Assembly: GCA_015485355.1 (NCBI GenBank)
Contig: WFTQ01000089.1
Span: 1-54,263 of the forward strand
Direction of reading: 5' to 3'
DNA length: 54,263 nt
Source of the DNA: a bacterium
GTDB lineage: Bacteria; Calditrichota; Calditrichia; RBG-13-44-9; J042
This document shows, piece after piece, positions 21,784 through 24,755 of this stretch; position 1 is the stretch's first letter, and each line of letters begins with the position of its first letter. The notes beneath the pieces are model-generated. The model made no database searches and had not been told where the DNA came from. It saw only the letters and a list, made by a program, of their open reading frames with translations. The translations under genes were made by a program, and so were the position numbers.

Positions 21784-21907
21784 CCCCCCGTGAGGCAGGA
21801 GCCGAAAACGCTTCCAAAAAGCGACCTATCTTTTTAAAAATGCAGAAACTGAGCATCTTTTCCGGAATAGAATGGGGATGGAAAAAATGGCAAGGAGGTG
21901 AGCAGAC

Positions 21908-22669
21908 ATGAAGGTGCTGGCTCTGGCAAACTACCGGGGTGAAGACCGCGTTTTACCCGATTTGAAAAGGCTGGTGGAAGGTGAAAAAGTGGACTTCATC
22001 GTCTTTGCCGGCGGCATCGTAAAGGGCCCGGAACGGGTAAAAGCATTTGAGGATGCCGAGAAAGACAGACGGCCGGTTTCTTTGGAAAAAGAGTCCGATG
22101 AAGAAGCCGGCACCTGGAAAGACTACGAGCTCTTTTTCAAAGGGATGGGCGAACTGAAGGTCCCGGTGTTCTATATTCCGGGGAAATTTGACGCCCCCAT
22201 CGACCGTTACCTGCGGGAGGCCTTTAATTACGAGCTTGTTTACCCGCACATCCGCAACATTCACAAAAGCTTTTCCTTTTACCGAAATCACTATGAGCTG
22301 GTCGGCTTTGGCGGGGAGATTTCCGAAAAAACCCGGGAAGAACGGTTCCTTTTACAATATCCTCGCTGGGAAGTCGAGTATCATCTGAAAATCATTCGCG
22401 ACCTCCGTCCCATGGAGTTGATCATGGTATTTTATACCCCACCCTATGGCGGGAAACTGGATTTAAAAGAGGGCCGGCATACAGGCTCCGAAGTGGTCGA
22501 AGATTTTATTAAAACCTACGATCCCACGTTTGCCTTCGTGGGTTCCGGCAGCGAACAGGGCGAGGAGATCATCGGAACCACCCATGTGGTCAATCCGGGC
22601 GCTTTACGAGAGGGCCGGTATGCCCTACTCAATTTGCGCCGCCGGGAAATTCGATTCCAAACCCTATAA
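21908..22669 (+). CDS. metallophosphoesterase-fold protein lacking metal ligands, 253 aa
   Basis: The order of strands and motifs follows the calcineurin-like phosphoesterase fold, but each expected metal-binding position is replaced. The D-x-H position reads N8-Y-R. The G-D position reads G35-G36. G-N-H-D reads G92-K-F-D95. The mid-domain S-H-x-P-P reads Y176-T-P-P. The G-H-x-H position reads G212-S-G-S215. The structural V-V-N-P-G-A is kept at 227-232. A charged ~30-residue insertion (41-72) is unusual. It is therefore likely a non-catalytic binding or scaffold protein. A textbook AAGGAGGTGA precedes the ATG. Family assignment is my inference from motif order. Confidence 0.7.
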   Translation: MKVLALANYRGEDRVLPDLKRLVEGEKVDFIVFAGGIVKGPERVKAFEDAEKDRRPVSLEKESDEEAGTWKDYELFFKGMGELKVPVFYIPGKFDAPIDRYLREAFNYELVYPHIRNIHKSFSFYRNHYELVGFGGEISEKTREERFLLQYPRWEVEYHLKIIRDLRPMELIMVFYTPPYGGKLDLKEGRHTGSEVVEDFIKTYDPTFAFVGSGSEQGEEIIGTTHVVNPGALREGRYALLNLRRREIRFQTL

Positions 22670-22931: not shown

Positions 22932-22958
22932 GATCCGGGGAACCTCGTTACCCGGATC
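22932..22958 (-). terminator. hairpin across the stop of the cysteine-hydrolase remnant
   Basis: GATCCGGG (22932-22939) pairs perfectly with CCCGGATC (22951-22958), loop 11 nt, and includes the last codons of the remnant. No clear T-tract follows, although AGTGA/TCACT nearby adds a second small stem. Confidence 0.35.
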
Positions 22959-23456
22959 CGCTCATCCACCGAATGAGTTCTGCCACCGGCAGATAAGGAA
23001 ACCGGGCTTCCACCCGCTTTTGCTGCCGGCGGAAAATGGTGGCGCTGGCATCGCTGGCCAGAAAGCAGCGGAACCCTTCCCGGGAAAGGCTCTTCATGGT
23101 TCGAGCCACACACTGATCCGTGGTAAATCCACAGAAAATAATCAGGCTTATGCCAGACTGTCTCAGTGTGGACAACAGGTTGCTTCCCCGGCAGGCGTCA
23201 AACCCATAGCGTCCTTTGATCACCACATCCGAGGGATGATAGATGCCCGGAGTAAACTCCGATTTCCAGGTACTGCGGTAAACCCCTTTAACAGACGGGG
23301 CAGTCAAGGCAGGCGCCGATAGGTGTGCCGGGAAGAAGGATCCACAATGAACGGCGCCTGAAACACGGCAACGCCTCGCTGAGGGGAAACGCGAAATCGG
23401 CGCGGCGGGGGAGCCGTTTTCCGGAAAACACGGTCCAAGTCGCCCGAACAACGGGA
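22948..23456 (-). pseudogene. remnant of an isochorismatase-like cysteine hydrolase
   Basis: The last ~95 residues, from S-E-F-T-P-G-I-Y-H-P-S-D-V-V-I-K-G, are clearly an isochorismatase-family hydrolase, with catalytic cysteine in C-G-F-T-T-D-Q-C-V-A-R-T-M. The part before it in this frame is nonsense-like (Pro/Ser/Cys-rich) and starts with a TTG overlapping the HD-GYP stop. In another frame, 23300-23400 encodes R-G-V-A-V-F-Q-A-P-F-I-V-D-P-S-S-R-H-T-Y-R-R-L-P, a TGA, then L-P-R-L-L-K-G, which fits the expected upstream strand. So at least one nonsense codon and one frameshift (in AAAGGGG near 23285) are present. The usual N-terminal D-x-Q nucleophile region is absent. The gene looks decayed. 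Confidence 0.65.
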
Positions 23457-24755
23457 TCAATATCGACGCTCATAATATTTATCAAACAAGGCCAACAGCT
23501 CTCGCTCGGCCGGGGCGAGATTCTCGGCACCGTCGCGCTTCCATTCTAATATACTTTTCAAGGGCACGGTGTAAAGTTTTTCGATCTCCTCCTCGTCCAG
23601 CTCCTGGAGCCGCTCCTGTTCCATGATCTCGATGAGGCGACCCGCGGGGATTAATTGAAAGGCCTGCACGCACCGGGGATCGAAGGCGGTTCCCGTTTCC
23701 TTCTCAATCAGCTGCCAGACCTTTTCCAGAGGCTCTCGATCGCGATATTGGCGGCGAGAGGTCAATGCATCGAAGACATCGGCCAGGCAAAGCATTCGCC
23801 CGCCGAATGGAATTTCCCCGTTCTTCAGTCCCGAGGGGTACCCCCTCCCGTCGATTCGCTCATGATGGGTGGCCGCGATTTCCGGTACGTTGCGCAATTT
23901 TTTATGAAAATAGATCTTGCTTAGAATCTCCCGGGTGATTTGAGGATGCGATTTGATCAGGGCATATTCTTCCTCGGTCAATTTGCCGGCTTTAAAAAGC
24001 ACCGATTCGGGAATACCCAGCTTGCCGATATCGTGCAGCAAGGCCGCGTACCGCAGCTCTTCGCGGGTATCCTCGTCCAGTCCCAGGGCATCGGAGAGGG
24101 CCAGGGTGTACAGCGTCACCCGGCGGGAATGCCCGGCGGTGATGTAGTCCCGGGCGTCCAGCGTGGTAGACAGGGTCTCGATAAAACTATTGAAACTCTT
24201 CACCTGATCTTCGTACAGCTGGGCATTCTCGATGGCGGTGGCGGCAATCTGGGAAATGGCCTCCAGCAATTCCTCATCCTGTTTGGTAAACGGGCCGTCG
24301 GTCTTGTTAAGCACCTGAAACACCCCGATAATGTCGTGCAGTTTATTGCGCAGGGGCATGGTCAGCATGCAACGGGTGCGGTAACCGGTTTTTTTATCGA
24401 TATCGGGATTGAAACGGGGGTCTTTATAGGCATCGGGGATGTTCAAAATTTCGCCCGTTTGGGCCACGTAACCGGCAATGCCCTTATCGGCCGGAAATCG
24501 AATTTGCTGGCCCTTTTTTAACCCCATCGCAACTATCGACCAGAGCTCGTTCGCTTCTTCATCCAGCAAAAACACGGAACAACGATCCGCATGCAGAATC
24601 TGAGCCACCTCCTCCATCATCTTCAACAACAGTTTGTCCAGAGAGAGCTCTTCCTGCAAACTCTGCGCAATGTGTAATAACACCTGGAGTCGCGCGTTTT
24701 CTTCTTCCAGCCGATGAAGCTTCTCCATCAAATCGATCTGGTTCACGCTGCTCAT
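23457..24755 (-). CDS. GAF plus HD-GYP domain protein, probable cyclic-di-GMP phosphodiesterase, 432 aa
   Basis: A short coiled coil (residues 5-30) leads into a GAF sensor domain (about 36-178) and an HD-GYP domain (about 185-375). The metal-binding residues H241-D242 lie in A-L-L-H-D-I-G-K-L-G-I-P, and H297-H298-E-R-I-D-G-R-G-Y-P (GYP at 305-307) is intact, so hydrolysis of cyclic-di-GMP is likely. There is no membrane segment, so it senses a cytoplasmic signal. The last ~60 residues are helical and acidic. The ATG overlaps the stop of the small membrane-protein gene and has GGAGGGAC upstream. Confidence 0.92.
   Translation of the reverse strand: MSSVNQIDLMEKLHRLEEENARLQVLLHIAQSLQEELSLDKLLLKMMEEVAQILHADRCSVFLLDEEANELWSIVAMGLKKGQQIRFPADKGIAGYVAQTGEILNIPDAYKDPRFNPDIDKKTGYRTRCMLTMPLRNKLHDIIGVFQVLNKTDGPFTKQDEELLEAISQIAATAIENAQLYEDQVKSFNSFIETLSTTLDARDYITAGHSRRVTLYTLALSDALGLDEDTREELRYAALLHDIGKLGIPESVLFKAGKLTEEEYALIKSHPQITREILSKIYFHKKLRNVPEIAATHHERIDGRGYPSGLKNGEIPFGGRMLCLADVFDALTSRRQYRDREPLEKVWQLIEKETGTAFDPRCVQAFQLIPAGRLIEIMEQERLQELDEEEIEKLYTVPLKSILEWKRDGAENLAPAERELLALFDKYYERRY

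What the first reader, a model, noticed from the sequence alone, without database searches (positions are those of the whole stretch)
21908..22669. Metallophosphoesterase-fold protein with every metal-binding motif substituted
The five classical motifs can be located in order, but the D-x-H, GD, GNHD, mid-domain H and GHxH positions read N-Y-R, GG, GKFD, YTPP and GSGS. The structural N-P-G is kept, and the gene has a perfect Shine-Dalgarno, so it is expressed and maintained rather than decaying. That suggests a pseudoenzyme with a binding role, possibly regulated by a ligand.
Basis: partly seen in the sequence, partly recalled or inferred. Interest (0 to 1): 0.65.

Follow-up and report, generated by a model that had tools for sequence, protein, structure and literature searches.

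The report
Metal-less phosphoesterase-fold pseudoenzyme, family PF14582
This bacterial gene makes a well-folded, conserved relative of phosphate-ester-cutting metalloenzymes that has lost every metal-holding residue, so it most likely works by binding a partner rather than by catalysis; it belongs to a known but unexplained family that, in other heat-loving bacteria, often sits beside chaperone and ribosome-hibernation genes.

Summary
The ORF at 21908-22669 (253 aa) belongs to Pfam PF14582 (Metallophos_3) and is modelled with high confidence as the calcineurin-like phosphoesterase fold (pLDDT 92.7; best match Aquifex aq_1956, 2YVT, TM 0.94). All seven metal-ligand positions are replaced (D8N, H10R, D36G, N93K, H176Y, H213S, H215S); only the second-shell D95 of motif III stays. 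Four Calditrichota orthologs (66-86% identical) keep 0-1 of 7 ligands, share the Shine-Dalgarno and are under strong purifying selection, so this is neither an error nor decay.

In Thermus and some actinobacteria the metal-less gene sits with Clp-type ATPase, HSP20 and Balon-like ribosome-hibernation genes; the intact Zixibacteria gene follows a radical SAM gene. The window gene has neither context.

Best reading: a non-catalytic binding or scaffold protein, possibly stress-linked. The ligand is unknown. The family is known, with structures from 2003-2007; I found no paper describing it as a pseudoenzyme or noting the intact branch or the operon link.

The parts
21908..22669 (+). CDS, 253 aa, PF14582 (Metallophos_3) calcineurin-like phosphoesterase fold, all seven metal ligands substituted
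   Evidence: E 5.5e-75; pLDDT 92.7; 2YVT TM 0.94
21892..21901 (+). Shine-Dalgarno AAGGAGGTGA, conserved in orthologs
21929..21937 (+). motif I D-x-H replaced by N8-Y9-R10
22010..22015 (+). motif II GD replaced by G35-G36
22181..22192 (+). motif III GN-x-[DE] replaced by G92-K93-F94-D95 (D95 kept)
22262..22264 (+). H119, invariant in all 36 PF14582 rows examined, no counterpart in the outgroup
22358..22381 (+). family signature Y151-P-R-W-E-V-E-Y158 (YPxWExEY), conserved in metal-less and intact PF14582 members, absent from the outgroup
22433..22435 (+). motif IV His replaced by Y176
22541..22552 (+). motif V GHxH replaced by G212-S-G-S215
22592..22600 (+). N229-P-G, kept in Calditrichota, Aquifex and the intact forms

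Best explanation
The gene encodes a true pseudoenzyme: a stably folded calcineurin-like phosphoesterase domain that cannot build the di-metal centre and therefore does not hydrolyse phosphoesters by the family mechanism. It derives from an active metallophosphoesterase of the PF14582 type, whose intact form survives in Zixibacteria. It is kept because it binds something, most likely a protein partner or a nucleotide/phosphate-like ligand, through surfaces that are still conserved (H119, the YPxWExEY segment, the GG loop). Shown: fold (by prediction and close homology to crystal structures), loss of all ligands, shared loss, purifying selection, intact sister branch. Inferred: absence of catalysis, binding role. 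Weaker inference, from relatives only: a role in stress proteostasis or dormancy, because metal-less homologs in Thermus and some actinobacteria sit with Clp ATPase, HSP20 and Balon-type hibernation genes.
For: PF14582 E 5.5e-75; 2YVT 2e-55 and 1UF3 8e-41 by sequence; model pLDDT 92.7, pTM 0.91, 2YVT TM 0.94, MJ0936 (1S3L) TMt 0.77, and proteins I know to be non-catalytic, GAP50 (3TGH) and the Pol epsilon B-subunit (5VBN), among Foldseek matches. Ligand count 0/7 in the window, 0-1/7 in four orthologs, 0-2/7 in all other metal-less members, 7/7 in four Zixibacteria members, 6-7/7 in the outgroup: a clean split. Purifying selection: pN/pS 0.095-0.29 over all ortholog pairs; dN/dS 0.08-0.10 where dS could be computed. 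A neighbouring cysteine-hydrolase gene is broken in this genome while this ORF is intact. Operon context of homologs: 11 of 11 Thermus-type loci have Clp, baeRF and HSP20 upstream on the same strand, HSP20 within about 35 bp of the matched part; L042 has a Clp gene 79 bp upstream, L130 has HSP20 then Clp downstream.
Against: No biochemical data; sequence cannot exclude a new metal-independent activity or binding of a metal by other residues. I did not inspect metal content in 2YVT or 1UF3. The Clp/HSP20/Balon context is absent in the window and in all Calditrichota loci; the own-genome Balon-type gene (contig C78) is not beside HSP20 or Clp either. The number of independent losses is unresolved (single loss not rejected, p-AU 0.196).
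Confidence: 0.82

Rival explanations
1. The protein is still an enzyme, with a remodelled, metal-independent or single-metal active site using K93, Y176, N8 or H119.
For: N8 is shared with Aquifex and Thermus, K/R93 with Aquifex, and H119 is invariant over the whole family including intact members.
Against: The old ligand columns vary freely across metal-less members (column 176 reads H, Y, A, Q, S, G, T, W; column 215 reads S, T, M, A, G, N, D, E), which is not how a new catalytic centre looks.
Confidence: 0.1
2. Stress-proteostasis adaptor: the metal-less PF14582 protein is a client, cofactor or ligand sensor of the Clp/HSP20/Balon machinery, and the Calditrichota copy does the same from another locus. 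(A more specific form of the best explanation, not exclusive of it.)
For: Operon linkage in all 11 Thermus-type loci, in L042 and L130, with looser linkage in L028 (Balon-type gene), L035 (HSP20) and L044 (Clp), and a YflT heat-stress domain gene directly upstream in L039 and L044. Balon genes are known to sit in stress operons with Hsp20 (PMC10901736).
Against: The link is missing in the window, in all Calditrichota, and in several other metal-less loci (L043, L045, L131, L132, L138, L144). The genes may share regulation only.
Confidence: 0.3
3. Second-messenger link: the protein senses or modulates c-di-GMP signalling.
For: In a second Thermaceae group the gene directly follows an HD-GYP-type protein (L040, L041, L137); an HD-GYP-type gene lies downstream in the window and in L022 and L024.
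Against: In Calditrichota that gene is convergent, separated by the broken hydrolase gene in the window, and absent from L023 and L025; HD-GYP genes are common.
Confidence: 0.07
4. Sequence error or decaying gene.
For: None beyond the odd motifs.
Against: Same losses in four independently assembled genomes, conserved Shine-Dalgarno, pN/pS well below 1.
Confidence: 0.01

Closest known systems
aq_1956 of Aquifex aeolicus (PDB 2YVT), PF14582
   Same: Same family and fold (TM 0.94, 40% identity), same insert after strand 2, N8, K93, Y176 and NPG alike, 1 of 7 ligands left.
   Different: Keeps the first His of motif V (GHVG) and reads GN at motif II.
TT1561 of Thermus thermophilus (PDB 1UF3), PF14582
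   Same: Same family and fold; close Thermus relatives read 0-1 of 7 ligands.
   Different: Lacks the helical insert of about residues 41-72; motif III PGPQD; in Thermus genomes the gene follows Clp, Balon-type and HSP20 genes, unlike the window gene.
Zixibacteria PF14582 proteins (L026, L095-L097)
   Same: L026 is 40% identical over full length, with the same insert, the same YPxWExEY and GFGGEI signatures and the same fold (2YVT TM 0.93).
   Different: Complete metal site 7/7; conserved gene set with a radical SAM protein and a 238-aa protein: presumably active enzymes.
YfcE / MJ0936 phosphodiesterases (1SU1, 1S3L)
   Same: Calcineurin-like fold (MJ0936 TMt 0.77).
   Different: Metal site intact there; about 12% identity for MJ0936 in the Foldseek alignment.
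Inactivated calcineurin-like B-subunits of eukaryotic DNA polymerases; Plasmodium GAP50
   Same: Precedent for the same fold turned into a non-catalytic scaffold (PMC4996933, for B-subunits; Foldseek matches 5VBN and 3TGH).
   Different: Eukaryotic, distant, with other partners.

Membership tests
PF14582 Metallophos_3 | Full-length profile match above the curated cut-off | tested here: met
   252.5 bits against cut-off 28.2, residues 2-253
PF14582 Metallophos_3 | Family-specific invariant residues (H119, P152, W154, GxGG at 133-136, YPxWExEY) | tested here: met
Calcineurin-like phosphoesterase fold | Two-sheet sandwich fold | tested here: met
Catalytic metallophosphoesterases (PF00149 type) | D-x-H / GD / GNH[DE] / H / GHxH metal ligands | tested here: not met
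   0 of 7 ligands; PF00149 score 20.2, below cut-off 21.5
Catalytic metallophosphoesterases (PF00149 type) | Metal-dependent phosphoesterase activity | not testable with these tools
   needs an assay
YfcE / MJ0936 phosphodiesterases | Intact di-metal site with phosphodiesterase activity | tested here: not met
   metal site absent; activity not tested
Clp - Balon-type - HSP20 - PF14582 stress operon (Thermus) | Same-strand neighbours Clp, baeRF, HSP20 | tested here: not met
   none in the whole window or in the Calditrichota loci

The most novel reading that the evidence does not exclude
Metal-less PF14582 proteins are a bacterial class of pseudo-phosphoesterases that act as ligand-gated adaptors of the stress machinery (Clp-type ATPase, small heat-shock protein, Balon-type ribosome hibernation factor), derived from an active enzyme still present in Zixibacteria.
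Probability: 0.25. Interest if true: 0.65.

Novelty: new member of a known kind. Interest (0 to 1): 0.42.

Why it matters
PF14582 members are annotated as metallophosphoesterases although most lack every metal ligand; the name should be corrected. The family offers a rare natural pair, intact and metal-less members with the same fold at about 40% identity, to study how an enzyme turns into a binding protein. The operon link in Thermus gives two crystal structures of unknown function (aq_1956, TT1561) a testable hypothesis.

Tried and rejected
Sequencing error or decay: rejected by orthologs and selection. Phage origin: no match in the phage collection. Local operon as a clue: the upstream tatC - polyprenyl synthase - heptosyltransferase run is shared by L022 and L025 but not by L023 or L024, and there is a gap of 124 bp before this gene. 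Sigma-70 promoter scan found nothing; a weak terminator-like site at 21809-21823 is within chance. Literature searches for TT1561/1UF3, aq_1956/2YVT and PF14582 gave no functional study; aq_1956 was used only as a modelling template for LpxH (PMC3087551), which does not show function. A search for papers on inactive metallophosphoesterases with pseudoenzyme terms gave nothing on this family. NCBIfam has no matching model. The rooted order inside the tree was not trusted: the outgroup branch is long (1.26) and roots inside Calditrichota.

Full report
Observation. The ORF 21908-22669 (+) encodes 253 aa behind a consensus Shine-Dalgarno AAGGAGGTGA at 21892-21901. It matches Pfam PF14582, Metallophos_3, over its whole length at E = 5.5e-75; PF00149 scores just under its cut-off. 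Its best solved relatives are aq_1956 of Aquifex (2YVT, E 2e-55) and TT1561 of Thermus (1UF3, E 8e-41). The genome belongs to Calditrichota, judged by the titles of its nearest relatives.

Fold. An AlphaFold2 model built on 31 aligned sequences has mean pLDDT 92.7 and pTM 0.91. Foldseek against the PDB gives 2YVT (TM 0.94) and 1UF3 (0.81), then Mre11, GpdQ, Rv0805, Dbr1, 5'-nucleotidase, MJ0936 (1S3L, TMt 0.77) and two proteins that I know to be non-catalytic, GAP50 (3TGH) and the Pol epsilon B-subunit (5VBN). The fold claim is therefore settled as far as prediction and homology can settle it.

Motifs. Aligning with intact relatives places the seven ligand positions without ambiguity. The window reads N8, R10, G36, K93, Y176, S213, S215 against D, H, D, N, H, H, H: 0 of 7. 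D95, the acidic second-shell residue of motif III, is invariant in every sequence. Four Calditrichota orthologs of 66-86% identity read 0-1 of 7. Aquifex keeps 1, Thermaceae, Actinomycetota and Poribacteria members 0-2. Four Zixibacteria members (L026, L095, L096, L097) keep all 7, although L026 is 40% identical to the window protein and has the same insert and signatures; its predicted structure matches 2YVT with TM 0.93. The outgroup keeps 6-7. There is nothing in between. So the loss is a property of most of PF14582, and an intact branch persists inside or beside it.

Tree. With motif columns left out, the Zixibacteria rows form a clade (97/98), the outgroup is separate (100/100), and the Thermaceae/Actinomycetota/Poribacteria rows form a clade (100/100). 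The order of deep branches is not resolved: the root falls inside Calditrichota on a long outgroup branch. A single loss is not rejected (p-AU 0.196). I therefore do not claim a number of losses.

Maintenance. Among five Calditrichota coding sequences pN/pS is 0.095-0.29; synonymous sites are near saturation, and where dS can be computed dN/dS is 0.08-0.10. A neighbouring isochorismatase-type cysteine hydrolase at about 22948-23460 (-) is broken in this genome while intact in L022; decay does happen here, but not in the gene in question. Constraint has left the metal-site columns (column 176 reads H, Y, A, Q, S, G, T, W across members) and rests on H119, P113, P152, W154, GxGG and YPxWExEY. 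These are PF14582 traits shared with intact members.

Distribution. Strong members are patchy: 6 of 40 genomes of the window's phylum (weaker hits there are intact relatives of another kind, as one search shows), the Thermus-like genus as a whole, two genera of another Thermaceae-like family, 4 of 132 genomes of the Zixibacteria phylum, a handful of 299 actinobacterial genomes in the sampled class, 1 of 85 in the Poribacteria phylum.

Neighbourhood. In all 11 Thermus-type loci examined the order is Clp-type AAA+ ATPase, Balon-type factor (baeRF_family10 in Pfam; the NCBIfam match is to a ribosome hibernation factor family, below its equivalog cut-off), HSP20, then the PF14582 gene, all on one strand, with HSP20 26-34 bp from the matched part. 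In Rubrobacteraceae L042 the Clp gene ends 79 bp upstream, with HSP20 and Balon-type genes within 4 kb; in actinobacterial L130 HSP20 and Clp follow directly on the same strand; L028 (Balon-type), L035 (HSP20) and L044 (Clp) show looser links; in L039 and L044 a YflT heat-stress domain gene is directly upstream. A published survey reports that Balon genes sit in stress operons with Hsp20, and names Thermus thermophilus among the carriers, but its text does not mention a phosphoesterase (PMC10901736). In another Thermaceae group the gene follows an HD-GYP-type protein (L040, L041, L137). The intact Zixibacteria genes instead follow a radical SAM gene and a 238-aa gene in 4 of 4 loci. So the metal-less and intact forms live in different gene company. 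None of these contexts is found at the window locus, whose nearest HD-GYP-type gene is convergent and separated; its Balon-type gene lies on another contig without HSP20 or Clp nearby.

Mechanism. Shown: fold, complete loss of ligands, conservation of the loss, selection, an intact sister branch. Inferred: no di-metal catalysis, because two metals cannot be held by N, R, G, K, Y, S, S and a lysine sits where the asparagine ligand was. Inferred: a binding or scaffold role, by analogy with the polymerase B-subunits, where loss of the metal site went with conversion to a scaffold (PMC4996933). Speculative for the window: participation in stress proteostasis, taken over from relatives.

Novelty. 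The family is named and two structures have been public since 2003 and 2007. I found no paper in the held library that treats PF14582 as a pseudoenzyme family or reports the intact branch or the Clp/Balon/HSP20 link of this gene, but most subscription papers are not held. I file the window protein as a new member of a known kind, with family-level observations that look unreported.

Noticed in passing
window 22948-23460 (-): Isochorismatase-type cysteine hydrolase gene that looks broken (frame change and stop) compared with the intact ortholog in L022 6978-7574.
   Followed up: partly
L026 4132-6759, L133-L135: Conserved Zixibacteria gene set: 238-aa protein without a clear family, small radical SAM protein, and a PF14582 protein with intact metal site; possibly a small modification pathway.
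   Followed up: partly
L027 1370-6666 and other Thermus loci: Clp ATPase, Balon-type factor, HSP20 and PF14582 in one same-strand run in all 11 Thermus-type loci examined.
   Followed up: yes
L041 3428-6678, L137, L040: HD-GYP-type sensor protein (822 aa in L041) directly upstream of the PF14582 gene in a Thermaceae group that lacks the chaperone context.
   Followed up: partly
L039 2509-4657, L044: YflT heat-stress domain protein directly upstream of the PF14582 gene in Solirubrobacterales and Conexibacter.
   Followed up: no
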